Source: Arenimonas fontis (GTDB taxonomy: Bacteria > Pseudomonadota > Gammaproteobacteria > Xanthomonadales > Xanthomonadaceae). Taken from it: a DNA stretch of 64,000 nt. The position numbers and the translations under genes are program-made. Positions within the stretch are counted from its first letter, which is position 1. Each line of letters starts with the position of its first letter. Where the stretch lies: the NCBI RefSeq assembly GCF_008386465.1, contig NZ_VUOD01000004.1, forward strand, positions 248,001-312,000, written 5' to 3'. The notes beneath the pieces are model-generated. The model did no database searches. It saw only the letters and a list, made by a program, of their open reading frames with translations, and was not told the DNA's origin. This document shows positions 9,173 through 52,643 of this stretch, in pieces.

Positions 9173-9676
9173 ATGAATGCCACGCCCGAGCTCGCCGAAA
9201 CCCCGGACCCGCGCCGGCCGATAGACCGTTACCTGCACAGCTACGCCGGCGACCACCAGCACCCGACCAACCAGGCCATCCACCTGGTCTGCGTGCCGGC
9301 CATCGTCTGGACGGTCACCGCCCTGCTCTGGACCGTCCCAGTGCCCGAAGCCCTGCTGCGTCCCGGCGCCTGGATGGCGCTGGCGATGTTCGCCGCCTGG
9401 CTGTGGTACTGGCGGCTGTCGCGCCGGCTGGCCCTGGGCGCGCTGGTGGTCTTTCTGGCCTTCGGCTTCCTCAACCGCTTCCTGTATGACAGCCTGGGCA
9501 ATGCCGGCCTGTTCTGGCTGGCCCTGGGCGTGTTCGTGATCGCCTGGATCGGCCAGTTCATCGGCCACAGGATCGAAGGCCGACGACCGAGTTTCTTCAC
9601 CGATCTGGTCTACCTGCTGATCGGGCCGCTGTGGACCCTGAGCAAGCTGTACAAGCGGCTGGGCTGGCGCTGGTGA
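9173..9676 (+). CDS. Mpo1-like membrane protein (DUF962)
   Basis: 167-aa integral membrane protein of the Mpo1/DUF962 family, whose yeast member is an iron-dependent dioxygenase in alpha-oxidation of 2-hydroxy fatty acids. Visible family features are SYAGDHQHPTNQAIHLVCVPAI at residues 17-38 with conserved histidines, four hydrophobic segments, and FIGHRIEGRRPSFFTDLVYLLIGPLW near the C-terminus. ATG at 9173 is chosen over 9143 because CGGAG precedes it. It follows purC by 55 bp. The bacterial substrate is unknown. Confidence 0.9.
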   Translation: MNATPELAETPDPRRPIDRYLHSYAGDHQHPTNQAIHLVCVPAIVWTVTALLWTVPVPEALLRPGAWMALAMFAAWLWYWRLSRRLALGALVVFLAFGFLNRFLYDSLGNAGLFWLALGVFVIAWIGQFIGHRIEGRRPSFFTDLVYLLIGPLWTLSKLYKRLGWRW

Positions 9677-9725
9677 GGATGCCGGCACCCCGGAGCCGTC
9701 AGGGCCGGGCGGCGGGAACGAAGAA

Positions 9726-9751
9726 GGCGCGGGCGGCGAACCGCCCGCGCC
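9726..9751. terminator. GC-rich hairpin terminator with CGAA loop
   Basis: Perfect 11-bp stem GGCGCGGGCGG / CCGCCCGCGCC with tetraloop CGAA, between the convergent Mpo1-like gene and the membrane protein gene at 9775. No long U-run follows in either direction. The same stem-CGAA-stem design recurs at 35864-35885. Confidence 0.7.
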
Positions 9752-9774
9752 CCGTGTTGCCGGGCGGTACGGCC

Positions 9775-10239
9775 TCAGCCCATGCCGGCGGCACCCATCA
9801 TCGCGGCGCCGAACACGATGCCGAAGATGATGCCGATGATCAGGCCCAGCACCACCATCACGATCATGTAGACCAGGGCATTGAGCAGGGCCCGGCCGAA
9901 GCCGAAGGCGCTGCCGTCCGGGCGCTTGACCAGCAGGTTGATGACGAAGGCGTAGATCAGCACGCTGGCGACGATGCTCAGGCCCATCACCAGCAACGAG
10001 GCGCCGCCCAGGGCCGCGGCCGCGCCCGGGTCGGTCGGGTCCATCGCCGCGCCGCCGCCCATCAGCAGCATGGTCAGCACGATGTTGACGATGAAGCCGA
10101 GCACGAAGGACAGGATCACCACCAGGATGCTCTTGCCATAGGACGGCGAGAACTTCTCCAGCAGCTTGATGACGAACTTCAGGATCAGGGCGCCAATCAG
10201 GACGCCGATCACCGCTGCAATCAGCATGATGATCAGCAT
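9775..10239 (-). CDS. Small four-helix membrane protein, unknown function
   Basis: 154-aa hydrophobic protein starting MLIIMLIAAVIGVLIGALILK. About four to five membrane segments are visible (residues 1-20, 40-65, 90-112, 125-150), rich in Gly, Ile and Val, with a short polar link MGGGAAMDPTDPGAAA. I recognise no family. ATG at 10239 begins the hydrophobic region; the longer frame adds a Pro/Gly-rich stretch without support. It is transcribed convergently with the Mpo1-like gene and divergently from the EamA transporter. Confidence 0.75.
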   Translation of the reverse strand: MLIIMLIAAVIGVLIGALILKFVIKLLEKFSPSYGKSILVVILSFVLGFIVNIVLTMLLMGGGAAMDPTDPGAAAALGGASLLVMGLSIVASVLIYAFVINLLVKRPDGSAFGFGRALLNALVYMIVMVVLGLIIGIIFGIVFGAAMMGAAGMG

Positions 10240-10325
10240 CGCGCGCCCCGGGACTTTGCCTGTTGCCGGGCCCGCCGGCAACTTTTTGCCCCCGCCCGGC
10301 CGCTCCTGGCTTGTCTCGCCCCGGC

Positions 10326-11213
10326 ATGAGCCCGCGCGACATCCTGCTGGTGCTGCTGGTCTGCCTGGCCTGGGCGGGCAACTTCCTCAGCTCGGCGCAT
10401 GCGCTGACCGAATTGCCACCCCTGCTGTTCACGGCGCTGAGGCTTGCCCTGCTGTCGGTGTTGCTTGCCCCCTTCCTGAGGGCGCCAGCGCCCGGGCAAT
10501 GGCCGCGGCTGCTGGCGATCTGCCTGAGCACGGGCGTGCTGCACTTCGGCCTGAGCTTCTGGGCGCTGAAGCTGGCCGGCGACCTGGCCTCGCCGGCCGT
10601 GGCGATGCAGAGCTACGTACCGATGGCGGCGCTGCTGGCCTGGTGGTGGCTGGGCGAACGCTTTGCCTGGCGCACCGGCACGGCCATCGCGCTGAGCTTC
10701 GCCGGCATCCTGGTGCTTGGCCTGGACCCGCTGGTGCTGGATGCGCCGGCATCGCTGGCCTTGATGCTGGTGTCGGCGTTCTTCCTGGCCGTGGGCACGG
10801 TGCTGATGCGCGGCCTGGCCGGACAGAGCCTGTTCAGCCAGCAGGGCTGGATCGCCGTGGTCGGCGTACTGCCCCTGTTCGGCCTGAGCGCCCTGCTGGA
10901 GCCCGGCGCCTGGGCGGCGGCCGGCGAGGCCGGCTGGAAAGGCTGGGGCGGCGTGGCCTACTCGGCCCTGGTGTCCAGCCTGTTCGGGCACGGCATGTAT
11001 TACCTGCTGGTCCGCCGCTACCCGGTGGCCATGGTCACGCCCTGGTTGCTGCTGGCGCCGGTGATGGCGATCGGCCTGGGCATCGCCTTCTGGGGCGACC
11101 GGCCGGGGCCGCGCCTGTGGCTGGGCGCGGCCATGGTGCTGGGCGGCGTGCTGGCCATCGCCATGCGCGGCCGGGCCAGGGCCAGGCCCGTGCCGGCCGC
11201 CGAGGACATCTAG
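10326..11213 (+). CDS. EamA-family (DMT) transporter
   Basis: 295-aa inner-membrane protein with ten hydrophobic segments in two EamA repeats. The first repeat holds LAWAGNFLSSAHALTELPPLLFTALR and the second FLAVGTVLMRGLAGQS...SLFGHGMYYLLVRRYPVAMVTP. It belongs to the drug/metabolite transporter superfamily (RhaT/YdcZ-like), which exports amino acids or metabolites; the substrate cannot be told from sequence. ATG at 10326 starts MSPRDILLVLLVCLAWAG, the usual start for this family. It ends 19 bp before the convergent RND gene. Confidence 0.9.
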   Translation: MSPRDILLVLLVCLAWAGNFLSSAHALTELPPLLFTALRLALLSVLLAPFLRAPAPGQWPRLLAICLSTGVLHFGLSFWALKLAGDLASPAVAMQSYVPMAALLAWWWLGERFAWRTGTAIALSFAGILVLGLDPLVLDAPASLALMLVSAFFLAVGTVLMRGLAGQSLFSQQGWIAVVGVLPLFGLSALLEPGAWAAAGEAGWKGWGGVAYSALVSSLFGHGMYYLLVRRYPVAMVTPWLLLAPVMAIGLGIAFWGDRPGPRLWLGAAMVLGGVLAIAMRGRARARPVPAAEDI

Positions 11214-38464: not shown

Positions 38465-39268
38465 TCAGGCGTGCTGCGGTCGTCCGGGTTCGGCAAGCAC
38501 GCCGGGGCCTCCCCCGCCCGGTTCGTGCCAGACCATCTTGCGGTGGTCGAAGCCGTGCTCCAGGCGTGGCTTGACGATCTGAAAGAAGGGGGAGACGTCG
38601 AAGTCGCGCGGCGCGTACAGGCTGTGATGACGGATGTGCAGGATCTCGCGCCGCTGTCGCCGCGCGGCCGGGTCGGCCGGTTCCTCCAGCTCGATCTCCG
38701 GCAGGATCGGGTAGCGGATCGAGGCGAAGGCCTGGGCCAGCAGGCTGGAGCAGATGGCCTTGGTCGGCTCGCCGCTTCCCAGGGCCAGCATGCGCCGCTT
38801 CATGCTGCCGGGCACCGGCGGCGTGCGGATGAAGTAGCGGGCCAGGTCGAAGACGTTTTTCAGGTCGTAGGCGACGCCGCGGCGATCGAGCATGAACCGC
38901 ACCAGCGCGTCCACCTCCTGCGGCGACAGGCCGACCGGGCGGCAGATCCGCGTATGCAGGCCGGCGAAAGTGCTCAGCGGAATGGTGCGCACGCCCTCGA
39001 GCACGTCCACGTCCACCAGCACCCTGGGTTCCTCGCCCGGCGGTGGCGGACCCAGGGCGTCGCCGATGTACAGCGCGGCATGCGACCAGGTGGACTGGGT
39101 AAGGTACTTGATCGCGGTGGCGAAACGGCTGTTGCCCTCGACCAGCAGCACGTCGCCCTTGCGCAGGGTCGCGCCCAGCAGGCCGGACGGACTGGTGGCG
39201 ATATGGCTGCCACGCGGCCGCGGCTTGGCCAGGAAGCGGGCGATCGCACGACCCAGCAGTTGCAGCAT
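38465..39268 (-). CDS. YiiX/YebB-like permuted NlpC/P60 papain-like hydrolase
   Basis: 267 aa. Central motifs are GDVLLVEGNSRFATAIKYLTQ and STWSHAALYIGDALG (the permuted catalytic His in HAALYIG); the Cys is in AICSSLLAQAFASI. This order (His before Cys) marks the YiiX-like circularly permuted NlpC/P60 family of lipid- or amide-acting enzymes. The N-terminus (MLQLLGRAIARFLAKP) is amphipathic; there is no signal peptide, so it is cytoplasmic or membrane-associated. Substrate unknown. Confidence 0.83.
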   Translation of the reverse strand: MLQLLGRAIARFLAKPRPRGSHIATSPSGLLGATLRKGDVLLVEGNSRFATAIKYLTQSTWSHAALYIGDALGPPPPGEEPRVLVDVDVLEGVRTIPLSTFAGLHTRICRPVGLSPQEVDALVRFMLDRRGVAYDLKNVFDLARYFIRTPPVPGSMKRRMLALGSGEPTKAICSSLLAQAFASIRYPILPEIELEEPADPAARRQRREILHIRHHSLYAPRDFDVSPFFQIVKPRLEHGFDHRKMVWHEPGGGGPGVLAEPGRPQHA

Positions 39269-39339: not shown

Positions 39340-40152
39340 TCAGCCCTGCGGATCCTCTCCGGCCAGCAGGGCACGCAGCGTGCGCAGGCGCGCCTTCACC
39401 CGGGCGGCATTGTCGGGCCCGATCCGCCACATCAGCTTGTGGCCCAGCGAGGCCGCCTCCATGCGCGGGTCGGCGAACTGCCAGCGCGGCTTGCCCTCGG
39501 CCGGCACCAGCTCGACCGGCCCGCGAAGCTCCGGCGCGGCAATCAGGTGGTCCAGTACCTCGACCAGGCGGTCGTTGAACTGCCGGTCGGGCACGCCCAG
39601 CTCGCGGTACGCCTGCTGGAACAGCGGATAGAAACGCACGTAGACGGAGACCAGGGCACGCGGCTCCACCGCTTCCAGCAGCCGGACATGGGCCTGGTAG
39701 CGGGTGAAATTGGCCTCGTCCAGCCAGTGCCGACCGTCCGCCCCGGCCACCGCCAGGCGGCCGGCCACCGGCCTGGCGACGTAAGCCTGCGGCGTCATGC
39801 GGGCGCGGGGCAGGTTGTCGATGGTCGCCACCAGACGCTGAACCAGGAACTCGCTGCGCAGGAAGGCGCCAGCATCCTCGCCCAGCAGCTCCGACAGCGC
39901 CGCCAGCGCGGCGCCGTCGCTGTCGGCCAGGGCCGGCAAGGGCTCGGCCGGCGCGTCTTCCGGAAGCACCGGCACCTGCCCGATCGGGTGCTGCACCGGC
40001 GGCGGCGCCTGTTCCACCGTGGCCACCGGCTCGGGCCCGGGCACCACCAGCTCGGCCGGTGCCTGACGCGGGTAGTACTTCCAGACCAGAAACCCGCTGA
40101 GGGCCAGCACCGCCACCGCCAGCCAGGGTCCGTAATGGAATCGTCGGCTCAT
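39340..40152 (-). CDS. DUF3014 membrane-anchored protein
   Basis: 270 aa. The single N-terminal membrane helix (YGPWLAVAVLALSGFLVWKYY, residues about 7-27) is followed by a Pro-rich spacer (30-75) and a DUF3014 domain (ALSELLGEDAGAFLRSEFLVQRLVATIDNLP; YVRFYPLFQQAYRELGVPDR). Function unknown. ATG at 40152; the frame continues upstream without a credible ribosome binding site. It is transcribed divergently from tldD. Confidence 0.88.
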   Translation of the reverse strand: MSRRFHYGPWLAVAVLALSGFLVWKYYPRQAPAELVVPGPEPVATVEQAPPPVQHPIGQVPVLPEDAPAEPLPALADSDGAALAALSELLGEDAGAFLRSEFLVQRLVATIDNLPRARMTPQAYVARPVAGRLAVAGADGRHWLDEANFTRYQAHVRLLEAVEPRALVSVYVRFYPLFQQAYRELGVPDRQFNDRLVEVLDHLIAAPELRGPVELVPAEGKPRWQFADPRMEAASLGHKLMWRIGPDNAARVKARLRTLRALLAGEDPQG

Positions 40153-40352
40153 CGAGCTCTCCGGACGTGGGATCGCTCCCCAGACTGTGCCGGCGCGGCT
40201 GAAGTTCCGCAAAACGCGATCCCGTGCCCGGATCGGGCGGGACTAGGCCATCAGTCACTTGACGCTCCCGGCACGGCCGCCCAGAGTCGGCCGGGCATTG
40301 CCCTCCGCCACCGGCGACGCCGGGTCCGGCCCCTTCCCGATGGAGTGACACG

Positions 40353-41984
40353 ATGGACAGACGCGACTTCCTGACAATCTCGGGCCTGGGCCTCGCCGGC
40401 CTGCTGATGCCCTACAGCCGCGCGATCGCCGCCGAGGAGCTGGTCGGCGGTGGCCTCGACCCGGCGATCAAGAAGGCCATGGCCGATGCCGGCCTGCAGG
40501 CCGCCCGCGATGCCGGTGCCAGCTACTGCGACGTGCGCATCGGCCGCTACCTGCAGCAGTTCGTCATCACCCGCGAGGACAAGGTCCAGAACGTCGTCAA
40601 CACCGAATCCACCGGCACCGGCATCCGGGTGATCGCCAACGGCGCCTGGGGCTTCGCCGCCACCCGCGATCTCAGCCCGCAGGGCGTGGCCGCCGCCGCT
40701 CGCCAGGCGGTCGCCATCGCCAAGGCCAACAGCCGCCTGCAGGCCAAGCCGGTGCAGCTGGCACCTGTCAAGGGCGTGGGTGAGGTCAGCTGGCGTACGC
40801 CGATCCGCAAGAACGCCATGGAAGTGCCGCTCAAGGAAAAGGTAGACCTGCTGCTGGGCGTCAACGCCGAGGCGCAGAAGGCCGGCGCCGATTTCGTCAA
40901 CTCGATCCTGTTCCTGGTCAACGAACAGAAGTACTTCGCCTCCACCGACGGCAGCTACATAGACCAGGACGTGCACCGGATATGGGCACCGTTCACGGTC
41001 ACCGCGGTCAACAAGGAGACCGGCAAGTTCCGCACCCGCGACGGCCTGTCGGCGCCGATGGGCATGGGCTGGGAGTACCTGGAGGGCGACCCGTCGCAGA
41101 AATACGTCCTGCCCAACGGGGTGGTCTGCTACGGCCGCTCCTACGACATGATCGAGGACGCCCGCTTCGCCGCGCGGCAGGCCCGGGAGAAACTGTCGGC
41201 GCCCTCGGTCGAGCCCGGCAAGTACGACCTGGTGCTCGATCCCTCGCACCTGTGGCTGACCATCCACGAGAACGTCGGCCACCCGCTGGAACTGGACCGC
41301 GTGCTCGGCTACGAAGCCAATTACGCCGGCACCAGCTTCGCCACCCTCGACAAGCGCGAGTCCGGCTTCCGCTACGGCAGCGAGATCGTCAACCTGTTCG
41401 CCGACAAGACCCAGGAAGGCAGCCTGGGCGCCGTCGGCTACGACGACGAAGGCGTCAAGACCAAGCGTTGGGACCTGGTCAAGGACGGCATCCTGGTCAA
41501 CTACCAGGCCATCCGCGACCAGGTGCACATCCTCGGCGAAACCGAGTCGCACGGCTGCTGTTATGCCGACTCCTGGGCCAGCGTGCAGTTCCAGCGCATG
41601 GCCAACGTCTCCTTGGCGCCCGGCAAGTCGAAGCTTTCGGTCGCCGACATGATCAAGAATGTGGAGAAGGGCATCTACATCATCGGCGACGGCTCGTTCT
41701 CGATCGACCAGCAACGCTACAACGCCCAGTTCGGCGGCCAGCTGTTCTACGAAATCAGGAACGGCGAGATCACCCGGATGCTGGAAGACGTGGCCTACCA
41801 GATCCGCACGCCGGAATTCTGGGGCGCCTGCTCGGCGATCTGCGACGAGTCCGACTACCGGCTCGGCGGCAGCTTCTTCGACGGCAAGGGCCAGCCCAGC
41901 CAGGTTTCGGCCGTCTCGCACGGGTCCAGCACGGCCCGGTTCGACGGCATGAACGTCATCAACACCGCCCGCAACATCGGCTGA
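40353..41984 (+). CDS. TldD-family metalloprotease with Tat signal
   Basis: 543 aa. N-terminal twin-arginine signal: DRRDFLTISGLGLAGLLMP then a hydrophobic stretch and cleavage around AIAAEE. The TldD domain follows, with the metal-binding motif HENVGH at about His305, plus YEANYAGTSFATLDK and YGSEIVNLFAD. Cytoplasmic TldD/TldE cleaves unfolded peptides (microcin B17, CcdA); a Tat leader implies export of this copy. It is the first gene of the eight-gene operon, followed 22 bp later by the TldE partner. Confidence 0.93.
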   Translation: MDRRDFLTISGLGLAGLLMPYSRAIAAEELVGGGLDPAIKKAMADAGLQAARDAGASYCDVRIGRYLQQFVITREDKVQNVVNTESTGTGIRVIANGAWGFAATRDLSPQGVAAAARQAVAIAKANSRLQAKPVQLAPVKGVGEVSWRTPIRKNAMEVPLKEKVDLLLGVNAEAQKAGADFVNSILFLVNEQKYFASTDGSYIDQDVHRIWAPFTVTAVNKETGKFRTRDGLSAPMGMGWEYLEGDPSQKYVLPNGVVCYGRSYDMIEDARFAARQAREKLSAPSVEPGKYDLVLDPSHLWLTIHENVGHPLELDRVLGYEANYAGTSFATLDKRESGFRYGSEIVNLFADKTQEGSLGAVGYDDEGVKTKRWDLVKDGILVNYQAIRDQVHILGETESHGCCYADSWASVQFQRMANVSLAPGKSKLSVADMIKNVEKGIYIIGDGSFSIDQQRYNAQFGGQLFYEIRNGEITRMLEDVAYQIRTPEFWGACSAICDESDYRLGGSFFDGKGQPSQVSAVSHGSSTARFDGMNVINTARNIG

Positions 41985-42006
41985 CCGGTCCAGGAGCCCG
42001 CAAACC

Positions 42007-43341
42007 ATGAGCATTCTCAGCGAAGAACAGGCCAAGGCCATCCTCGACAAGGTCCTCGCGCTGTCGCAGGCCGACGAGTGCACCGCCACTCTCAGCGGCT
42101 CGGTGGAGGGCAACATCCGTTTCGCCCTCAACCAGGTCTCCACCAGCGGCATCGTCTCCAACGCCCAGTTGGTGGTGCAGTCCGCCTTCGGCAAGCGCGA
42201 GGGCATCACCACCATCAACAGCTTCGACGATGCGTCGCTGGAGCGGGTGGTGCGCCGCTCGGAAGAACTGGCCCGGCTGGCGCCGGAGAATCCGGAGTAC
42301 ATGCCGGCGCTGGAGAAACAGAGCTACCGTCCCAGCCCGACCTTCGTCCAGGCCACCGCCGACGTCACCCCCGAGCAGCGCGCCCAGGTGGCGGCAGCCT
42401 CGATAGCACCCTGCAAGGACGCCGGGCTGATCGCCGCCGGTTTCCTGCAGGACAACCAGAGCTTCTTCGCCTTCGCCAACTCCAAGGGCAACTTCGGTTA
42501 CCAGCGCAGCACCAACATGGATTACACCTGCACGGTGCGCACCGAGGACGGCCGCGGCTCGGGCTGGGTCTCGCGCAACACCGCCGACTTCAGCCGCTTC
42601 AGCCCCGGCGACGACATCCAGGTGGCGATCCGGAAGGCGCGCGACTCGGCCGAGGCCAAGGCGCTGGAGCCGGGCAAGTACACCGTGATCCTGGAACCGG
42701 CCGCAGCCGCCGGCCTGATCAGTTTCATGATGTTCTTCTTCGACGCCCGCCAGGCCGACGAGGGCCGCAGCTTCCTCAGCAAGAAGGGCGGCGGCACCCG
42801 CCTGGGCGAGCAGGTGTACGACCCGCGCGTGACCATCGTCGCCGACCCCTGGCACCCGGAGGCGGCGGTCATGCCCTGGGACCAGCAGGGCCTGCCGCGC
42901 GAGGCGCATCCGATCATCAAGGACGGCAAGGTCGAGTACCTGCAGTACTCGCGCTACTGGGCCCAGAAGCAGGGCAAGCGCGCGGTCGGCCAGCCCGGCA
43001 ACCTGATCATGTCCGGCGGCGACAAATCCACCGCCGAACTGGTGAAGGGCACCCAGCGCGGCATCCTGGTCACCCGCACCTGGTACATCCGGATGGTGGA
43101 CCCGCAAACCGTGTTGCTGACCGGCCTGACCCGCGACGGCACCTTCTACATCGAAAACGGCGAAATCAAACACCCGGTGAAGAACTTCCGCTTCAACGAG
43201 TCGCCGGTGATCATGCTCAACAACATCGAGGAGCTGGGCAAGCCGATCCGCATCAGCGGCGACGAGTCGCCGTTCGTGATGATGATCCCGCCGATGAAGC
43301 TGCGCGACTTCACCTTCACCTCGCTTTCCGACGCCGTGTGA
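42007..43341 (+). CDS. TldE/PmbA-family partner protease subunit
   Basis: 444 aa. The TldE-like fold carries the family's repeated pattern (FALNQVSTSGIVSNAQLVVQSAFGKREG, VILEPAAAAGLISFMMFFFDARQADEGRSFL) but no HExxxH motif, as in TldE. It would pair with the TldD upstream. No Tat motif or signal peptide is visible at the N-terminus (MSILSEEQAKAILDKV). So if the complex is exported, this subunit must travel with TldD; otherwise the pair is split between compartments. CCAGGAGCCCGCAAACC upstream gives a ribosome binding site. Confidence 0.9.
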   Translation: MSILSEEQAKAILDKVLALSQADECTATLSGSVEGNIRFALNQVSTSGIVSNAQLVVQSAFGKREGITTINSFDDASLERVVRRSEELARLAPENPEYMPALEKQSYRPSPTFVQATADVTPEQRAQVAAASIAPCKDAGLIAAGFLQDNQSFFAFANSKGNFGYQRSTNMDYTCTVRTEDGRGSGWVSRNTADFSRFSPGDDIQVAIRKARDSAEAKALEPGKYTVILEPAAAAGLISFMMFFFDARQADEGRSFLSKKGGGTRLGEQVYDPRVTIVADPWHPEAAVMPWDQQGLPREAHPIIKDGKVEYLQYSRYWAQKQGKRAVGQPGNLIMSGGDKSTAELVKGTQRGILVTRTWYIRMVDPQTVLLTGLTRDGTFYIENGEIKHPVKNFRFNESPVIMLNNIEELGKPIRISGDESPFVMMIPPMKLRDFTFTSLSDAV

Positions 43342-43347
43342 GGCCGG

Positions 43348-44055
43348 ATGGGGGCGCCGCTGCATCGCCGTCGTTTCCTCGGCCTGCTCGGCGCCGCCCT
43401 CGCCGCGGCGGCGGTGCGCCCGGCGCGCGCCGGCGGCGGCGGTTACGACTTCTGGTTCACCCGCCTGATGTACGAATCCGGCGACTGGGACGTCGACCAG
43501 CGCATGCCGGCCAACCTGATCACCTCGCTGATCGACTACACCGGCCTGCGGGTGGACCCGAACGAGCACGTGCTGGCGCTGGCCGACCCGCGCGTGCTGC
43601 AGGCCCCGTTCTGCTATCTGGCCGGGCACAAGCTGGTGGAGTTCAATGCGGACGAGCGGCGCAATTTCGAGCGTTACGTGCGCAACGGCGGCTTCGTGTT
43701 CGTGGATGACTGCAACCACGACATAGACGGCCTGTTCGCCCGCTCGTTCGAGGCGGAGATGGCCTCGATCTTCGGCGGCGACGCCCTGCGCAAGCTGCCG
43801 AACGACCATCCGATCTACACGAGCTTCTTCCGTTTCGACGGCCCGCCCGCCACCAGCTTCGAACTCAACGGCTGGGGCGACGACCTGGTGCACGACTACC
43901 TCAAGGGCATCGCCATCAACGGCCGCCTCGGCGTGCTCTACAGCAACAAGGACTACGGTTGCGAATGGGACTACGACTGGCGCAACAAGCGCTGGCTGGC
44001 CGAGGACAACACCCGTTTCGCCGTCAATATCGTCGTGTACGCACTGACCAGCTAG
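43348..44055 (+). CDS. DUF4159 protein with Tat signal
   Basis: 235 aa. The N-terminus MGAPLHRRRFLGLLGAALAAAAV carries an RRRFLGLLG twin-arginine motif. The DUF4159 domain follows: FWFTRLMYESGDWDVDQRMP, FVFVDDCNHDIDGLFARSFEAEMASIFGGDALRKLP and HPIYTSFFRFDG. DUF4159 resembles glutamine amidotransferase-type folds and is usually a domain of bacterial surface proteins. Function unknown. Sits 6 bp after tldE and 6 bp before moxR. Confidence 0.88.
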   Translation: MGAPLHRRRFLGLLGAALAAAAVRPARAGGGGYDFWFTRLMYESGDWDVDQRMPANLITSLIDYTGLRVDPNEHVLALADPRVLQAPFCYLAGHKLVEFNADERRNFERYVRNGGFVFVDDCNHDIDGLFARSFEAEMASIFGGDALRKLPNDHPIYTSFFRFDGPPATSFELNGWGDDLVHDYLKGIAINGRLGVLYSNKDYGCEWDYDWRNKRWLAEDNTRFAVNIVVYALTS

Positions 44056-44061
44056 GACGCC

Positions 44062-45057
<996 letters not shown>

Positions 45058-45065
45058 GGCCTGCG

Positions 45066-45956
45066 GTGGGCGGTCCGGACTACATCCCCGCGGCCGTGCG
45101 CGCCCGCCTGCGCGGGCTGCGCCTGGGCGGCCGTCGCGCCGCCGGCGGCGAGGGTTTTGGCCAGCACCGCAGCCGCAGCCGCGGCGCCGGCCTGGAGTTC
45201 GCCCAGTACCGCCCTTACGAGCCCGGCGACGAACCGCGCCAGGTGGATTGGAAACTGTACGCCCGCTCGGATCGCTTCTTCGTGCGCGAGGCCGAACGCG
45301 ACAGTCCATTGACCGCCTGGGTACTGGTGGACGCCAGTGCTTCGATGGACCAGGCCGAACCCGGCGACGGCACCCGACTCGATGCCGCCCGGGTTCTGGC
45401 CGCCTGCGTCTTCGAACTGGCCCTGCGTCAGGGCGACCGCTTCGGCCTGGCGACGATCGGCGGGACCGGACTGCAACTGGTGTCCGCCGGCGCCGGCCCG
45501 CGCCAACGCGACCGTTGCCTGCTGGCGCTGCGGAGCCTGCGCGCCGGCGGCGCCTGGCCGGACCAGACCGTACTGCGCCCGCTCTGGGAGCGGATCGGCG
45601 CCGGACACCTGGTGCTGCTGCTGTCCGACGACTTCGACGAGGCCGCCATCGTGCTGATGGAGAAGCTGTCGGCGGCCCGCCGCGAGGTACTCAACATCCA
45701 GCTGCTGACCAGCGAGGAACGCGACTTCCCTTTCCGCGGCGGCCATCGCTTCGTCGAACCGGAAAGCGGGCGCGAGCTGAGCAGTGACGGCGCCGCCGTC
45801 CGCGAGGATTTCCTCCGTCGCTTCGGCGAAGCCCGCCAGGCCCTGCACGCGCGCCTGGCCGCCGCCGGCGTGCGCCGCGTCGAACACGTGCTGGACCGGC
45901 CGCCGGACGAGCCGCTGCGCGCTCTGTTCGCCTCCCGGCCGGTGGAACGCGCATGA
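45066..45956 (+). CDS. DUF58/VWA-like protein
   Basis: 296 aa. The DUF58 signature is RGAGLEFAQYRPYEPGDEPRQVDWKLYAR (about residues 40-68), followed by a VWA-like domain with the MIDAS-type VLVDASASMD. DUF58 proteins work with MoxR ATPases. It overlaps the BatA-like gene by 4 bp and is next to the ATPase. Confidence 0.92.
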   Translation: MGGPDYIPAAVRARLRGLRLGGRRAAGGEGFGQHRSRSRGAGLEFAQYRPYEPGDEPRQVDWKLYARSDRFFVREAERDSPLTAWVLVDASASMDQAEPGDGTRLDAARVLAACVFELALRQGDRFGLATIGGTGLQLVSAGAGPRQRDRCLLALRSLRAGGAWPDQTVLRPLWERIGAGHLVLLLSDDFDEAAIVLMEKLSAARREVLNIQLLTSEERDFPFRGGHRFVEPESGRELSSDGAAVREDFLRRFGEARQALHARLAAAGVRRVEHVLDRPPDEPLRALFASRPVERA

Positions 45957-47077
45957 TCACCGGCTTTGCTGCCCCGCTGGCGCTCTGGGCACTGGCAGCG
46001 CTGGCCTTGCCGCTGCTGCTGCACCTGGCGCGGCGCGAGCGGCAGCGACGCACGGTTTTTGCCGCCCTGGCCTGGCTGTTGCCGCGGCAGCGTCCGCGCC
46101 GCCGCCTGCGCCTGCAGGAATGGCCGCTGCTGGTCCTGCGCATGGCCCTGCTGGCCGCGCTGGCCCTGCTGCTGGCGCAGCCGCTGCGCACGCCCGACCC
46201 GCCCGGCGCCTGGGAGCTCGTGCACCCCGTGTTGTCCGCGCCCGCCGGCGAGGCACCCGAAGGTATCGAGCGTCGCTGGCTGGCACCGGGCTTCCCGCCG
46301 ACCTCCCTGCCCGCGCCTTCCGCCGAATCGCTGCCGGTGGCCAGCCTGTTGCGCCAGGCCGATGCCGAGCTGCCCGCGCAGACCGCGCTCACCGTGCGAC
46401 TGCCGCGCCGCCTGGCCGGCCTGGATGCACAGGCGCTGGCGCTGTCGCGGGTGCCGGTCTGGCAGATCGAGGACGCAGCGGATACGGCAAGCGCAGCCGC
46501 ACCTGTCCAGACCCGCGGCATCGCCCTGCGCGGCGACGCTGATGCCGCTTCACGCCGCTGGCTGCGCGCACTGCACGCCGCCTGGCAGGCGGAAGCCGGC
46601 GACGCCGCCGCACCGGATGAAGGTGAAGGACTGCCGGCAAGCGGGCGACTCACCGCCTGGACTGGCGCCGGCCCCGTGCCGGCGACGTTGCTGGACTGGG
46701 TCGCGCAAGGCGGTGAATTGCTGCTGGATGCCGACACCGCCTGGCCGTTGCCCTCGCCGCCGGCGAACCTGCCCGGCGACTGGCTGCGCGGCTTGGCGCA
46801 CGGCCGGGGTCGCGTCTTGCAGTGGCGTACTCCGCTGCAGCCCGAACATCGCCCGGAACTGCTGGAGGCCGATTTTCCCAGCCGCCTGCGTGCGCAGCTG
46901 TGGCCGCCACCGGCGCCGACGCTGGCCGATGCCGAGGTCGTGAAGCCGGCGGTGACCAAGGCGGACTACACAACGCCGCCGACGCCCTGGACGATGCCTT
47001 TGCTGTGGCTGGCGCTGGCGCTGTTCGCGCTCGAACGCTGGCTGGGCACGCTTCCCGGCCGGGAGGCGACGACATGA
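45953..47077 (+). CDS. BatA-domain membrane protein
   Basis: 374 aa with membrane helices at residues about 6-24 and 56-72 (GFAAPLALWALAALALPLLLHL, WPLLVLRMALLAALALLLAQ), the N-terminal BatA pattern. A periplasmic region has Ala-rich low complexity, and a C-terminal helix (MPLLWLALALFALERWLG) ends the protein. The VWA domain of true BatA is absent or degenerate: the middle (residues 80-330) lacks DxSxS. Likely the membrane component of the MoxR/DUF58 system. ATGA overlaps both neighbours. Confidence 0.85.
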   Translation: MITGFAAPLALWALAALALPLLLHLARRERQRRTVFAALAWLLPRQRPRRRLRLQEWPLLVLRMALLAALALLLAQPLRTPDPPGAWELVHPVLSAPAGEAPEGIERRWLAPGFPPTSLPAPSAESLPVASLLRQADAELPAQTALTVRLPRRLAGLDAQALALSRVPVWQIEDAADTASAAAPVQTRGIALRGDADAASRRWLRALHAAWQAEAGDAAAPDEGEGLPASGRLTAWTGAGPVPATLLDWVAQGGELLLDADTAWPLPSPPANLPGDWLRGLAHGRGRVLQWRTPLQPEHRPELLEADFPSRLRAQLWPPPAPTLADAEVVKPAVTKADYTTPPTPWTMPLLWLALALFALERWLGTLPGREATT

Positions 47078-49194
47078 TGCCCTTGCTGGCGCACGCGCTT
47101 GCCGCCGCCCGCCGCCGCGCCGCGATGGCATGGTTGCTGGGCGGCCTGCCACCACTGGCGCTGCTGGCCTGGCTGGGCCTGCGTGCCGATGGCGGACGCG
47201 GCACCCTGCTGGCGCTGGCGGTCGCGCTGCCACTGCTCGCCTTCCTGGCCTGGCGTGCCTGGCGGATCCGTGATCCCGCCTGGGCCGCGCGCCGGCTGGA
47301 CCGCCGCCCTGACATGGAGGACAGCGCCGACCTGCTGCTGATGCCGCCGGCGCGGCCCAGCCCGCTGCAATCCCTGCAGGCCCAGCGCCTGGCCGAGCGC
47401 CTGCGCGCGCAGCCGCCCGAGCTGCGCGAGCCCTGGCCCTGGCGCGCGCTGCTGACCAGCCTCGCCGGCACGGCGCTGTGCACCCTTGCCGTGCTGCACT
47501 GGCCGGCCGCCGACACCGGCGCCGCCGCCACGCCCGCGCCGACGGCGGAGGACGTCGAGGCAGCAGCGACCGCGCTGCTGCTGAGCGAGACCGAACTGCG
47601 GGTGATGCCGCCCGCCTACACCGGCCTGCCCGCGGAAGTGGCACCGGAGCTGTCGCGCCGCGTGCCCGCCGGCAGCCGCCTGACCTGGCGCCTGCGCCTG
47701 CGACCGCAGCCGGAGTCGCTGCGCCTGCGCTGGCACGACGGCCGCGAACTCGCCCTGCGCCGCGAAGGCGAGGACTGGCTGGGCGAAACCACGATCGAAC
47801 GCTCCGGTCTCTACCGCCTGGTCGCCGGGCACGCCTTGCCGCTGGCCGCGGACCGCCTGCACCGCATCGACGTCGTCGCCGACCGGCCGCCCGAAATCCG
47901 CGCGATCGCGCCCGAACGCACGCTCAGCCTGCGCGAGGATGGCCAGCGGCACTGGCGACTGGCCTTCGAGGCCAGCGACGACCACGGCCTCGGACAGGCC
48001 CGCCTGCACATCACCCTGGCCCAGGGCAGCGGCGAACAGGTGAGCGTCAGCGAGCGGCAGATCGCCGTGCGCGGCGAAGGCGACACGCGCGCGCGGCGTT
48101 ACGTCCACCGGCTGGACCTGGCCGCGCTCGGCCTGGCCCAGGGCGATGACCTGATCGTGCGCCTGGAGGTGGCCGACAACCGCCGGCCGGCGCCGCAGTG
48201 GAGCCGCAGCGCCAGCTTCGTCCTGCGCTGGCCGCCGCCGCCCGCCGCCGAGGCCACCGGCATGGAAGGCCTGATCGAGCGGGCGCTGCCGGCCTACTTC
48301 CGCAGCCAGCGCCAGATCATCATCGACACCGAGGCGCTGATCGCCCAGCGCGGTCGCCTGCGCCGCGACAGCTTCGTCTCGCGCTCGGACGCCATCGGCG
48401 TGGACCAGCGCCTGCTGCGCCTGCGCTACGGCCAGTTCATGGGCGAGGAGGACGAAGGCTGGGACGCCGAGGCTCGCAGCGGCGATCACGAGGGCGGCCA
48501 CCAGGAAGAAGAACACCCTGCCGGCGACGGTCATGACCACGGCGAAGGCGAGACCGCGCCACTGGGCGGCGCGGTCAGCGCGCTGGAGGAGTTCGGCCAC
48601 ACCCACGACGACGCCGAGGCCGCCACCCTGCTGGACCCGGAAACCCGCGCCCTGCTCCGCCAGGCGCTGAACGCGATGTGGTCCTCGGAAAGCGAGCTGC
48701 GCCGCGGCCAGCCCGAGCAGGCACTGCCGCATGCCTATCGCGCCCTGGATTTCATCAAGCAGGTGCAGCAGGCCAGCCGCATCTACCTGGCCCGTGTCGG
48801 CCTGGAGTTGCCGCCGGTGGACGAGTCGCGCCGGCTCACCGGCAAGCGCGAAGGCATCGCCAGCCGCCGCCACGCCATGGCCCCGGCGCAGTCGGTCGGC
48901 GGCCCGACGCCAGCGCTTTGGCAGGCCCTGGACGGTGGTGATCCGACGCAGCCGCTGCAGGACTTCGCCCGCTGGCTGGGCGGACGCGCCGGCGATGACA
49001 CGGAAACGCTGGACCTGATGGAAGCGATCGAAGCGCTGCGCGCCGATCCGGATTGCGATGACTGCCGCGAACGCCTGCGCCGTCGGCTCTGGCCGCTGCT
49101 GCCGGCGCCGGCGCCGGCGGCGCAGGCGCGGCCGGCGCCGGACGCGGCCGGCGAAGCCTGGCTGCGCGCACTGACGGAGGACGGGACACCATGA
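47074..49194 (+). CDS. DUF4175 membrane protein
   Basis: 706 aa. N-terminal hydrophobic part with three helices (MAWLLGGLPPLALLAWLGLR, LLALAVALPLLAFLAW, LLTSLAGTALCTLAVLHW), then a long soluble region rich in Arg and Glu. The DUF4175 pattern is present in VMPPAYTGLPAEVAPELSRRVPAGS and FEASDDHGLGQARLHI. A DEDEG/HEGGH...HDHG stretch (about residues 455-500) is histidine- and acid-rich and may bind metal. A C-terminal domain counts Arg/Leu helices. Function unknown; envelope protein. Confidence 0.87.
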   Translation: MMPLLAHALAAARRRAAMAWLLGGLPPLALLAWLGLRADGGRGTLLALAVALPLLAFLAWRAWRIRDPAWAARRLDRRPDMEDSADLLLMPPARPSPLQSLQAQRLAERLRAQPPELREPWPWRALLTSLAGTALCTLAVLHWPAADTGAAATPAPTAEDVEAAATALLLSETELRVMPPAYTGLPAEVAPELSRRVPAGSRLTWRLRLRPQPESLRLRWHDGRELALRREGEDWLGETTIERSGLYRLVAGHALPLAADRLHRIDVVADRPPEIRAIAPERTLSLREDGQRHWRLAFEASDDHGLGQARLHITLAQGSGEQVSVSERQIAVRGEGDTRARRYVHRLDLAALGLAQGDDLIVRLEVADNRRPAPQWSRSASFVLRWPPPPAAEATGMEGLIERALPAYFRSQRQIIIDTEALIAQRGRLRRDSFVSRSDAIGVDQRLLRLRYGQFMGEEDEGWDAEARSGDHEGGHQEEEHPAGDGHDHGEGETAPLGGAVSALEEFGHTHDDAEAATLLDPETRALLRQALNAMWSSESELRRGQPEQALPHAYRALDFIKQVQQASRIYLARVGLELPPVDESRRLTGKREGIASRRHAMAPAQSVGGPTPALWQALDGGDPTQPLQDFARWLGGRAGDDTETLDLMEAIEALRADPDCDDCRERLRRRLWPLLPAPAPAAQARPAPDAAGEAWLRALTEDGTP

Positions 49195-50951
49195 GCCCGC
49201 CGCAGGCGTTCGCGCTGATCCTGGCTGGCATTGCACTGTCGGCGACGGTCAGCAGCCTGTTGCGCGGCCGCCGCGCCGGCTGGAGCCGCGGCCGCGTCGC
49301 AGCGGTGCTGCTCCTGCAGCCCTTGCTGGCCCTGCTGTTCTGGCTGGCGCTGTGGCCGCCTGCGGGCGAAGGCGAACGGCCACGTCTGGTGGTGCTGACG
49401 GCCGGCGCCGAACCTGAGGCGCCGGCGCTGGCGCCGGACGAGCGCTTGTTCGCCCTGCCCGATGCGCCGCGCCCGCCCGGCGCGACGCCGGTGCCGGACC
49501 TGGCCAGCCTGCTGCGCCGGCATCCGCAGGCGCGCGGCCTGCGCGTGCTCGGCCAGGGCCTGGCCGCGCACGACCGCGAGGCGGCGCAGGGCTGGCCTCT
49601 GCAGTTCGAAGCCGCGCCGGCGCCGACCGGCCTGGTTGCCCTGGATTGGCCGACACGACTGCCGGCCGGCGCGCCGCTGCCGGTGGCCGGCCGCGTCGCC
49701 GGCATCGGGCAGGCACGCCTGGAGCTGCGCGACCCCGCCGGTGAGCGCGTGGACAGCGCGCTCGCCGGCGAAGACGGCCACTTCCGCCTGCAGGCCTGGA
49801 CCGGCCTGCCCGGCCGCGTCGCCTACCAGCTGCAACTGCTGGACGCCTCCGGCGAGGTGCTGACGCAGGCGACGCTGCCGCTGCAGGTACTGCCGGGCCA
49901 CCCGCATCGGCTCTGGCTGCGCGCCGGCGCGCCGAATGCCGAACTGAAATACCTGGGCCGCTGGGCGCTCGACGCCGGCCTGTCATTGCACGCCGAGTTC
50001 GCCCTCGGCGCCGGCATCCGCATCGGCGACCGAAGTCGCCCGGTGAATGCCGCCGAACTGGCCCGGACCGACCTGCTGATCCTGGACGAACGCAGCTGGC
50101 GCGAGCTCGGTCCGGCCGGCCGCGCCGCCGTGGACGATGCGGTGCGCGAAGGACTGGGCCTGCTGCTGCGCATCTCCGGCCCGCTGGATGCGGCGACGCG
50201 CCGCGAGCTGGCCGAGCGCGGCTTCCGGCTCGAAACGGACACCGGGACAGGCCAGGTCGAACTGCCCCTTGCGCTGACGCCGCGCGCGCGCGGCGAGGAG
50301 GTGGTGCCGCGGCTGGGGCGCTGGCCGGGGCGGCTGTCGGCGCCAGGCGGCGCCGTGTTGCTGGCCGATGCCCGCGGCCGGGCGCTGGCCGCCTGGCAGG
50401 CGCGCGGGCGTGGTCGCGTCGGCGTCTGGCTGCTCGACGACAGCTACCGCTGGTATCTGGCCGGCTACCCGCAGGCGCACGGCCATCTCTGGGCCCGCGC
50501 CGTGGCAACGCTGGCGCGTCCGCAGCCCTCGGCCAGGGCGGTGGCGCCGGCCCGTGGCCGGGTGGGCGAGCGCGCCGCCCTGTGCGGCCTGGGCGCGGAC
50601 GCGGAGCTGGAAGCGCCTTCCGGCGCCCGCATGGCCCTGATGCCCGATCCCGCCACCGGCCCCGCCGCATGCGCCGCCGTCTGGCCGCGCGAGGCGGGCT
50701 GGCACCGCCTCCGCGACGGCGGACGTGAACTGTCCTGGTGGGTGATGCCGGCCGATGCCCTGCCCGGGGTGCAGGCGCAGGCGCGTCGCCAAACCACGCT
50801 GGCGCTGGCGGCGCAGTCGCCGGCCGAACGCGTGGGCCCCGCGCCGTCCACGCCGGGCCCACGCTGGCCCTGGTGGGCGGCCTGGCTGGCGCTGGCAGCC
50901 CTGGCCTGGGCCCTGGAACGGCCGCGTCCGCGCGCAACCCGGGTCGGGTGA
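49191..50951 (+). CDS. Large envelope protein at end of the tldD-moxR operon, unknown function
   Basis: 586 aa. N-terminal helices at about residues 5-22 and 38-57, a beta-rich middle (WPTRLPAGAPLPVAGRVAGIG, LELRDPAGERVDSALAGEDGHF) resembling Ig/carboxypeptidase-regulatory-like modules, and a domain with LILDERSWRELGPAGRAAVDDAVREGLGLLLRI resembling a glutamine-amidotransferase-like fold. A C-terminal helix (PWWAAWLALAALAWALE) anchors it. This layout fits the large BatB-like or putative VWA partner seen after DUF4175 in other clusters, but I do not recognise a named family. Ends 0 bp before the convergent HD-GYP gene. Confidence 0.75.
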   Translation: MSPPQAFALILAGIALSATVSSLLRGRRAGWSRGRVAAVLLLQPLLALLFWLALWPPAGEGERPRLVVLTAGAEPEAPALAPDERLFALPDAPRPPGATPVPDLASLLRRHPQARGLRVLGQGLAAHDREAAQGWPLQFEAAPAPTGLVALDWPTRLPAGAPLPVAGRVAGIGQARLELRDPAGERVDSALAGEDGHFRLQAWTGLPGRVAYQLQLLDASGEVLTQATLPLQVLPGHPHRLWLRAGAPNAELKYLGRWALDAGLSLHAEFALGAGIRIGDRSRPVNAAELARTDLLILDERSWRELGPAGRAAVDDAVREGLGLLLRISGPLDAATRRELAERGFRLETDTGTGQVELPLALTPRARGEEVVPRLGRWPGRLSAPGGAVLLADARGRALAAWQARGRGRVGVWLLDDSYRWYLAGYPQAHGHLWARAVATLARPQPSARAVAPARGRVGERAALCGLGADAELEAPSGARMALMPDPATGPAACAAVWPREAGWHRLRDGGRELSWWVMPADALPGVQAQARRQTTLALAAQSPAERVGPAPSTPGPRWPWWAAWLALAALAWALERPRPRATRVG

Positions 50952-52643
50952 TCAGCGGCCCTGCCGGGGTGCCGCAGCACCCTTGGCCGCACGGCGCGCC
51001 TCGTCCCCGGCGGCCAGTTCGGCCGCCAGCGCCGGCGACACGCCAGGAATGCGGTGCCAGTCGATCTCGTCGATCTGCTCCGGCGGCAGGAAGCGCTCCG
51101 CATATTCCAGGTAGACCCGCTCGCGCAGGAAGACATCGAACAGGTCCGGGTCCACGTGGTTGTCCAGCTTCATGCGGCCGAGGATGGTCAGCGATTCGGA
51201 CAGCGTCTTGCCGGTCTTGTAGGGCCGGTCGGCGGCGGTCAGGGCCTCGAAGACGTCGGCGATGCCCATCACCCGGGCCGGGATGCTCATCTGCTCGCGG
51301 GTCAGGCCACGCGGATAGCCCTTGCCGTCCATGCGCTCGTGGTGACCACCGGCGTACTCCGGCACCCGGCGCAGGTGTGGCGGCCAGGGCAACGCCTCCA
51401 GCATGCGGATGGTCACCACGATGTGGTGGTTGATGATGCCGCGCTCGGCCTCGGTGAGCGTGCCGCGGCGGATGCACAGGTTCTCCAGCTCGTCGGCGCT
51501 GAGGAAGGACTGCTCGCTGCCGTCCGGGCCGCGCCAGCGCATGGCGCCGATGCGGCGGATGTTGGCGATGCGGGCGTCGTCCATGAACTCGCCGCCGATG
51601 TTGGCCTCACGCACCGCCTCGCGGTCGGCGTCGAGGCGGGCCAGGCGGTCGCGGTAGCCGTCTTCGTCCAGCTCGCCCCTCAGCAGGGCGATCTCGGCGT
51701 CGCGCCTGAGCACCTCGAAGCGGGTGTCCACCAGTTCGATGCGGTCGAACAGGGTCTGCAGCTTGGTGGCCTTGTCCACCACGTGCACCGGGGTGGTGAT
51801 CTTGCCGCAGTCATGCAGCAGGCCGGCGATCTTCAGCTCGTAGCGGTCGGCCTCATTCATGCGGAAACCGGCCAGCGGCCCGACCTCGGTGCGGTGCGCC
51901 GCTTCGGCCAGCAGGCTGGTCAGCACCGGCACCCGCTCGCAGTGGCCGCCGGTGTAGGGCGACTTCTCGTCGATGGCGGTGTTGATCAGGTTGATCAGGG
52001 CCTCGAACAGGTTCTCCAGCTGGTCGATCAGCCGACGATTGTTCAGGGCGATCGCCGCCTGCGAAGCCAGCGATTCCACCAGGCGCTGGTCGGCGTCGGT
52101 GAAGGCCACCGTGTTGCCCTGGTCATCCTTGGCGTTGATCAGTTGCAAGACGCCGATCACGCGGCCGTCGTGATCCTTCATCGGTACGGTCAGGAAGGAC
52201 TGCGAGCGGTAGCCGGTGCGGGCATCGAAGGCGCGGGTGCCGCTGAAGTCGTAACCCTCGGCGTCGTAGGCGTCGGGAATGTTGACGGTCTCGCCGGTCA
52301 GGGCCGCGTGCGCCACCACCATGCCATGGTTGCCGCTGCCGTCCGGCAGGTACAGCGGCAGCGGCGCAAAGTCTATCGGCTCGCCATGCCGCCCGCCCTT
52401 GAAGTAGCCCAGGCTGTGGTTGCGCAGTACCGCGAAGTGCAGGCGATCGTCCTCCACCCGGTACAGGGTGCCGCCGTCGGCGCGGGCGAACTCTCGCGCC
52501 GCCTCCAGGATGCGTTCCAGCAGGGTCGGCAGGTCGCGCTCGTGCGAGAGGGCGATGCCGATGGCATTGAGGGTGTCCAGTCGGGCAAGGATGTCGTCGG
52601 CACTTTGCATGGCGGCTGGCCTGGTACCGGTTGCAGTGAACAT
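50952..52643 (-). CDS. GAF and HD-GYP cyclic-di-GMP phosphodiesterase
   Basis: 563 aa. GAF sensor domain (about residues 30-195; ends VESLASQAAIALNNRRLIDQ), then an HD-GYP domain (about 210-500). This has the HD in LLHDCGK and the GYP motif in HHERMDGKGYP. It hydrolyses cyclic-di-GMP. The C-terminal tail (about 505-563) is Ala-rich. The first eleven residues are dispensable (a second ATG at Met12 starts MQSADDILARLDTLN). Ends immediately at the convergent gene without an intergenic gap. Confidence 0.93.
   Translation of the reverse strand: MFTATGTRPAAMQSADDILARLDTLNAIGIALSHERDLPTLLERILEAAREFARADGGTLYRVEDDRLHFAVLRNHSLGYFKGGRHGEPIDFAPLPLYLPDGSGNHGMVVAHAALTGETVNIPDAYDAEGYDFSGTRAFDARTGYRSQSFLTVPMKDHDGRVIGVLQLINAKDDQGNTVAFTDADQRLVESLASQAAIALNNRRLIDQLENLFEALINLINTAIDEKSPYTGGHCERVPVLTSLLAEAAHRTEVGPLAGFRMNEADRYELKIAGLLHDCGKITTPVHVVDKATKLQTLFDRIELVDTRFEVLRRDAEIALLRGELDEDGYRDRLARLDADREAVREANIGGEFMDDARIANIRRIGAMRWRGPDGSEQSFLSADELENLCIRRGTLTEAERGIINHHIVVTIRMLEALPWPPHLRRVPEYAGGHHERMDGKGYPRGLTREQMSIPARVMGIADVFEALTAADRPYKTGKTLSESLTILGRMKLDNHVDPDLFDVFLRERVYLEYAERFLPPEQIDEIDWHRIPGVSPALAAELAAGDEARRAAKGAAAPRQGR

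What the first reader, a model, noticed from the sequence alone, without database searches (positions are those of the whole stretch)
40353..50951. Eight-gene TldD/TldE-DUF4159-MoxR-DUF58-BatA-DUF4175 operon as one envelope system
Gaps of 4-bp overlaps to 22 bp show one operon. It joins a protease pair, a chaperone ATPase with its DUF58 partner and four membrane or secreted proteins of unknown function. This could be an envelope quality-control or peptide-processing machine; MoxR-DUF58-BatA modules are known, but the combination with an exported TldD/TldE and DUF4159 is not described as far as I know. It is the best candidate in the window for an undescribed system.
Basis: partly seen in the sequence, partly recalled or inferred. 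Interest (0 to 1): 0.78.

Follow-up and report, generated by a model that had tools for sequence, protein, structure and literature searches.

The report
Exported TldD/TldE protease with MoxR complex
Eight neighbouring genes that bacteria in this group keep or lose together appear to send a hollow peptide-cutting enzyme across the inner membrane and pair it there with an ATP-driven membrane complex whose purpose is still unknown.

Summary
Eight same-strand genes (40353-50951), with gaps of -4 to 22 bp, encode TldD, TldE, DUF4159, MoxR, DUF58, a BatA-N membrane protein, a DUF4175-type protein and a membrane protein without a Pfam match. They are inherited as a unit: of 80 relatives kept from 595, all 70 not cut by a contig end hold all eight; in 200 genomes of the order TldD and DUF4159 occur in the same 37.

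New anatomy: all 114 full-length TldD copies carry a twin-arginine motif; none of 80 TldE has an obvious signal; the usual Cys metal ligand is gone, with an invariant Asp two columns on. This suggests Tat export of a folded TldD/TldE pair. A rare operon type has the same MoxR-DUF58-BatA-DUF4159 core beside an unrelated zinc peptidase; the commoner fused type has no TldD/TldE.

Best reading: an inner-membrane, ATP-driven complex working with a periplasmic peptidase; substrate unknown. What is almost certainly this operon was called "not-yet-characterized" in Stenotrophomonas maltophilia in 2020 (PMC7688217). New variant of a known kind.

The parts
40353..41984 (+). tldD: exported-type TldD metallopeptidase subunit, 543 aa
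   Evidence: Three PmbA_TldD domains; HExxxH aligned with E. coli TldD 5nj5
40353..40436 (+). Tat-type signal sequence of TldD (RRDFL, then AIAA)
   Evidence: RRxF near the N-terminus in 114 of 114 full-length TldD copies
41265..41282 (+). HENVGH metal-binding motif of TldD (residues 305-310)
41880..41882 (+). Asp510, candidate third metal ligand in place of Cys
   Evidence: Asp in 77 of 77, two alignment columns after the canonical Cys column, which is Phe in 77 of 77; the alignment has a gap here
42007..43341 (+). tldE: non-catalytic partner, 444 aa, no signal sequence
   Evidence: HExxxH in 0 of 80, no RR motif or hydrophobic N-terminus in 80 of 80
43348..44055 (+). DUF4159 protein, 235 aa, with N-terminal signal-like segment
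   Evidence: PF13709 3e-52; solved relative 4i66, E 9e-9
43705..43728 (+). DDCNHDID motif of this DUF4159 subfamily
   Evidence: Conserved in at least 97% of 79 rows; differs from the fused forms
44062..45057 (+). moxR: MoxR AAA+ ATPase, 331 aa
   Evidence: AAA_3 3e-63; Walker A and B motifs in 77 of 77; solved relative 2r44
45066..45956 (+). DUF58 (VWA-like) protein, 296 aa, with DASAS
   Evidence: PF01882 7e-30; DxSxS in 50 of 75
45953..47077 (+). BatA-N membrane protein, 374 aa
   Evidence: PF07584 6e-15; C-terminal TM-like segment in 71 of 74
47074..49194 (+). Gene 7: DUF4175-type membrane protein, 706 aa
   Evidence: PF13779 in 7 of 36 relatives; model mean pLDDT 80, pTM 0.46
49191..50951 (+). 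Gene 8: membrane protein, 586 aa, with Ig-like and GATase/ThuA-like regions
   Evidence: Weak hits in relatives; model mean pLDDT 91, pTM 0.69; Foldseek hits of low TM-score

Best explanation
The eight genes encode one envelope machine. Shown by comparison: they are inherited as a unit; every full-length TldD copy examined carries a Tat motif and an intact HExxxH, while TldE has neither. Inferred: TldD and TldE fold and pair in the cytoplasm and leave together through Tat on TldD's signal (TldE hitch-hikes), giving a closed, hollow metallopeptidase in the periplasm that trims unfolded peptides. Asp in place of the Cys ligand would suit an oxidising compartment. The BatA-N, DUF4175 and gene-8 proteins sit in the inner membrane with large periplasmic parts, and DUF4159 is exported to the same side. 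MoxR and DUF58 are the cytoplasmic ATPase and its adaptor, docked on those membrane proteins. The ATPase drives assembly or conformational cycling of the membrane complex, which hands unfolded or modified peptides to the peptidase or switches it on. The coupling step is inference.
For: Unit: 70 of 70 uncut loci complete; same 37 of 200 genomes for TldD and DUF4159; TldD of this type in exactly the 5 of 150 Pseudomonadota genomes with short DUF4159. Export: RRxF in 114 of 114, TatC in the genome, no signal in 80 of 80 TldE. Chemistry: HExxxH in 77 of 77; Asp near the lost Cys, a replacement noted for other members in PMC5810440 (passages), which also shows that TldD and TldE form an obligate heterodimer for activity. 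Topology: TM-like segments. Peptidase link: type-C operons pair the same core with a TPR-Peptidase MA protein.
Against: The fused type has MoxR and DUF58 without TldD or TldE in 17 of 17 fetched loci, so the core does not need this peptidase. Four of nine type-C DUF4159 places have no MoxR, DUF58, BatA or peptidase match in the fetched stretch. The hydrophobic core of the TldD signal passed my simple threshold in only 44 of 77. The signal type of DUF4159 is unclear. Gaps at tldE/DUF4159 and DUF4159/moxR are often wide (medians 88 and 60 bp). No interaction, localisation or activity was measured.
Confidence: 0.5

Rival explanations
1. MoxR-DUF58 is a cytoplasmic maturation factor: it loads metal into TldD or assembles TldD with TldE before Tat export, which needs folded substrates. 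The membrane proteins dock this step at the inner membrane.
For: Tat motif on TldD; MoxR-VWA pairs are known to insert metals or remodel enzymes (recalled: NorQ/NorD, CoxD/CoxE, CbbQ/CbbO).
Against: The same MoxR-DUF58 core occurs without TldD in the fused type, and beside a different peptidase whose L162 member begins like an ordinary signal peptide by eye. It does not explain three membrane proteins with large probable periplasmic parts.
Confidence: 0.18
2. The cassette matures or degrades one dedicated exported peptide (a modified peptide or cofactor precursor encoded elsewhere), with TldD/TldE as the processing protease.
For: Known TldD/TldE roles are in peptide maturation: microcin B17 (PMC5810440, passages) and, by disruption phenotype and proposal, PQQ in Gluconobacter (PMC8602642, passages).
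Against: No precursor or modifying-enzyme family is conserved beside the operon in the 80 loci; ORFs under 110 codons were not examined.
Confidence: 0.14
3. Two modules share an operon for expression only: an exported TldD/TldE pair and a Bat-like MoxR membrane system that do not touch each other.
For: The MoxR core exists without TldD; TldD copies multiply separately (38 of 76 loci have two); insertions, up to about 7 kb in L089, lie between tldE and DUF4159.
Against: All-or-none occurrence in 200 genomes of the order and a second, unrelated peptidase beside the same core.
Confidence: 0.15

Closest known systems
E. coli TldD/TldE (PmbA) metallopeptidase, PDB 5nj5 (PMC5810440)
   Same: Three-domain pair; HExxxH in TldD only
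   Different: Tat motif on TldD; Cys ligand column is Phe with Asp two columns on; far below the NCBIfam equivalog cut-offs for TldD and PmbA; linked to a MoxR operon
MoxR-DUF58-[BatA+DUF4159 fused]-GATase-like operons of Pseudomonadota (unnamed; loci L141-L159)
   Same: MoxR, DUF58, BatA N-terminus and DUF4159 together
   Different: DUF4159 fused to the BatA-type protein, no DDCNHDID motif, no TldD, TldE, gene-7 or gene-8 match
Bat (Bacteroides aerotolerance) operons (PMC3557215, passages)
   Same: Contiguous moxR and a BatA-type N-terminal membrane domain
   Different: No VWA match in the window BatA protein; TldD/TldE, DUF4159 and DUF4175 added. Recalled: Bat operons have VWA BatA and BatB, TPR BatC and BatE, and BatD
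S. maltophilia operon NIPOLPBK_01784-01792 (PMC7688217, passages)
   Same: Two TldD, a putative protease, a MoxR-like ATPase, a membrane protein and three hypothetical proteins; almost certainly this operon with its second tldD
   Different: Known only as down-regulated in biofilm and not yet characterized; identity not checked by sequence here

Membership tests
TldD/TldE metallopeptidase | PmbA_TldD domains over the curated cut-off in both proteins | tested here: met
TldD/TldE metallopeptidase | HExxxH in TldD, absent from TldE | tested here: met
   77 of 77 and 0 of 80
TldD/TldE metallopeptidase | Third metal ligand Cys (E. coli Cys454) | tested here: inconclusive
   Cys column is Phe in 77 of 77, Asp two columns on in 77 of 77; PMC5810440 allows Asp as a replacement
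TldD/TldE metallopeptidase | Active heterodimer | not testable with these tools
   Needs protein work
Tat substrate (TldD) | Twin-arginine motif at the N-terminus | tested here: met
   RRxF in 114 of 114 copies of 500 aa or more; 75 of 77 with chosen start codons
Tat substrate (TldD) | Export through TatABC | not testable with these tools
   Only that TatC is present in the genome
MoxR AAA+ with DUF58/VWA partner | Walker A and B motifs in the MoxR protein | tested here: met
   77 of 77 each; AAA_3 3e-63
MoxR AAA+ with DUF58/VWA partner | MIDAS-type DxSxS in the partner | tested here: inconclusive
   Present in the window but in only 50 of 75 relatives
Bat (aerotolerance) operon | BatA with a VWA domain (feature recalled) | tested here: not met
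   BatA N-terminus only, no VWA match; filed as Bat-like, not as Bat
DUF4175 (PF13779) | Match over the Pfam cut-off | tested here: inconclusive
   None for the window protein; 7 of 36 relatives match, best 5e-13
Anti-phage defence (PADLOC) | Match to a defence model | tested here: not met
   Only MoxR to mad8 at 17.6 bits over 51 residues, a weak general AAA match

The most novel reading that the evidence does not exclude
A general scheme: a cytoplasmic MoxR-DUF58 motor works through inner-membrane Bat-like proteins and periplasmic DUF4159 to feed or gate exported zinc peptidases, and lineages have plugged different peptidases into the same core (Tat-exported TldD/TldE here, a TPR-Peptidase MA protein in type C). 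That would be ATP-driven proteolysis acting in the periplasm, a compartment without ATP.
Probability: 0.2. Interest if true: 0.85.

Novelty: new variant of a known kind. Interest (0 to 1): 0.62.

Why it matters
The characterised TldD/TldE pairs act on peptides inside the cell; a Tat-exported pair in which one subunit has no signal would extend both TldD biology and Tat hitch-hiking. The all-or-none link to a MoxR-DUF58 membrane complex gives a way into Bat-like systems, whose function PMC3557215 leaves unresolved. The different peptidase in type C makes a shared peptidase role directly testable.

Tried and rejected
Defence system: no support (PADLOC). Mobile plasmid cassette: in the plasmid collection only two records match TldD at E 1e-50, both actinobacterial at 41-43% identity. 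Further conserved partner genes: clustering of flanking ORFs of 110 codons or more in the 80 loci gave the second tldD (42 loci), overlapping or antisense frames that I judge by position to be its shadows, and families in 21 loci or fewer at variable positions, one of them DUF938. Promoter/terminator scan: 0 promoter-like sites and 4 terminator-like sites against 3.8 expected, uninformative. Foldseek against PDB (top 50 of each list seen): gene 7 gave generic beta-sandwich hits; gene 8 gave mixed glycosidase, Ig-like and GATase-like hits, query TM-score at most 0.25, used only as a hint. Twin-arginine route for DUF4159: not established, motif in 6 of 79. In the fused-form alignment two of 17 rows (L149, L150) were antisense ORFs picked wrongly and are ignored. 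A later script found 16 of 17 fused proteins, 10 of them with a fourth hydrophobic segment before DUF4159, though some may be one long segment split by the script. The P values printed ignore phylogeny and are not used.

Limits: the 80 loci are the best of 595 and lean to close relatives; 12 of the 29 long-form and one (G134) of the five short-form genomes were not fetched at length. The TldD tree is of the quick kind and puts the window TldD beside the second-copy clade at SH-aLRT 83 only, so which copy the window kept is open. L163 (type-C DUF4159, contig ends 1.9 kb beyond it) was left out of the type-C count. Statements that something is not in print rest alone; the TldD/TldE review cited in PMC11732741 is not held.
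Full report
Observation. The eight ORFs lie at 40353-50951 on the + strand with gaps of 22, 6, 6, 8, -4, -4 and -4 bp. The upstream neighbour (DUF3014, 39340-40212) and the downstream neighbour (GAF plus HD domains, 50952-52643) are on the other strand, so the set is bounded on both sides. Pfam names six of the eight at its own cut-offs. Gene 7 is DUF4175 only through relatives (7 of 36). Gene 8 has only weak Ig-like, carboxypeptidase-regulatory-like and ThuA-like hits in relatives.

Unit. By record title they are mostly Lysobacterales-type Gammaproteobacteria, Sphingomonadales with Erythrobacter and Porphyrobacter, and Brevundimonas. In 67 of 80 all eight genes are collinear. Three more (L048, L072, L105) hold all eight, but the best TldD hit is a second copy. 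The other ten run into a contig end by the ranges. So 70 of 70 uncut loci hold all eight. Some have insertions, about 7 kb between tldE and DUF4159 in L089. Gaps DUF58/BatA, BatA/gene 7 and gene 7/gene 8 have median -4 bp, but tldE/DUF4159 and DUF4159/moxR have medians of 88 and 60 bp; one transcript is likely, not proven.

Occurrence. Among 41 near relatives the DUF4159 protein is found in 27, two of them only by weak distant matches. In 200 genomes of the order, TldD (E 1e-60) and DUF4159 (E 1e-5) are found in the same 37, none discordant, with absences inside genera that otherwise have both (g16: G314; g102: G347). In 150 Pseudomonadota genomes DUF4159 occurs in 34: 5 with short frames (237-299 aa) and 29 with long ones (918 aa or more); TldD of this type occurs in exactly those 5. 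Of 20 neighbourhoods fetched, 3 of 3 short ones have all eight genes and 17 of 17 long ones have MoxR and DUF58 but no TldD, TldE, gene-7 or gene-8 match at E 1e-3. Pfam shows BatA fused to DUF4159 in the 3 long proteins scanned, and a GATase-like next gene in the 2 scanned. Three more divergent short loci (L165-L167) match all eight profiles, the last gene of L167 cut by the contig end.

Peptidase. HExxxH is in 77 of 77 TldD and 0 of 80 TldE and aligns with that of E. coli TldD. All 114 TldD copies of 500 aa or more in the 80 loci have RRxF near the N-terminus; with chosen start codons the looser motif was in 75 of 77, and the hydrophobic stretch passed a simple threshold in 44 of 77. R3, R4, F6, P20, A26 and A27 are among the positions conserved in at least 97% of rows. 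TldE shows neither motif nor hydrophobic N-terminus in 80 of 80. The genome also has TatC, and an ordinary TldD with HExxxH and Cys plus a PmbA-like protein elsewhere. In the exported TldDs the Cys column is Phe in 77 of 77, with Asp two columns on in 77 of 77, in a gapped part of the alignment. PMC5810440 (passages) shows Cys454 as third ligand, notes that Asp can replace it in some members, and shows a hollow heterodimer that takes unfolded peptides and needs both subunits. I infer the same chemistry in a form suited to the periplasm. In 38 of 76 loci with full-length TldD there are two copies, all 114 with HExxxH.

Membrane and ATPase parts. The BatA-type protein has two N-terminal TM-like segments in the window and a C-terminal one in 71 of 74; gene 7 has three segments in 53 of 72; gene 8 has two N-terminal ones in the window, and a C-terminal one in only 20 of 71, although its model has a helix at 559-576. 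Large intervening parts are therefore probably periplasmic. Positions conserved in at least 97% of rows: TldD 249 of 543, TldE 189 of 444, DUF4159 118 of 235, MoxR 171 of 331, DUF58 53 of 296, BatA 32 of 374, gene 7 97 of 706, gene 8 37 of 586. DUF4159 carries a DDCNHDID motif absent from the fused forms and has one solved relative, 4i66.

A third arrangement (type C). A distant DUF4159 in the same order sits in L162 and L164 with a GATase-like protein, a 333-353 aa protein, a TPR protein with Peptidase_MA_2 (HEIAH, 40.2 bits, above cut-off, in L162; HEMAH, 30.1 bits, just below it, in L164), MoxR, DUF58 and BatA with VWA. A class search with that DUF4159 matched 4 of 321 genomes at 7 places. 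With the two starting loci that makes nine: three complete (L162, L164, L172), one cut by the contig end, its peptidase fragment without the HExxH part (L173), one with peptidase-MoxR-DUF58-BatA nearby (L174), and four with none of these (L168-L171). A non-homologous zinc peptidase beside the same core is the best hint that the core works with peptidases; the fused type, without TldD, and the four bare places count against a strict rule.

Literature. No held paper contains DUF4159. TldD with twin-arginine gave one paper, a hot-spring metagenome study (listing). [quoted passage not shown] PMC6430473 (table passage) lists two tldD genes, XC_0094 and XC_0096, with values 2.32 and 2.53 in an HpaR1 comparison; that they are this operon's tandem copies is my inference. 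PMC8745565 and PMC11732741 (passages) mention a tldD that I cannot assign. PMC3557215 (passages) leaves Bat function unresolved.

Judgement. The unit is real and its parts are sound. An exported peptidase with a MoxR membrane complex is the most likely reading, at about even odds for the mechanism as stated. It is a new variant built from known kinds of parts.

Noticed in passing
L162:261-10394; L164:82-10534; L172:1-10484: Type-C operon: DUF4159, GATase-like protein, a further protein, TPR-Peptidase MA, MoxR, DUF58, BatA; the same core beside a different zinc peptidase.
   Followed up: partly
L168-L171, about 9400-10400 of each: Type-C DUF4159 genes with none of the core or peptidase genes in the fetched 20 kb; one genome (G613) has three of them.
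   Followed up: no
L033 and L064: Records titled Rhizobium sp. (MAG) and Bacillus subtilis carry loci that look Lysobacteraceae-like; probably mis-binned or contaminated records.
   Followed up: no
L085:17709-19340 and L105:11830-13461: In two Brevundimonas records a second tldD lies downstream of the operon on the opposite strand.
   Followed up: no
window 38465-39268 (- strand): Possible YiiX/C92-type permuted papain-like amidase near the operon, just below the Pfam cut-off.
   Followed up: no
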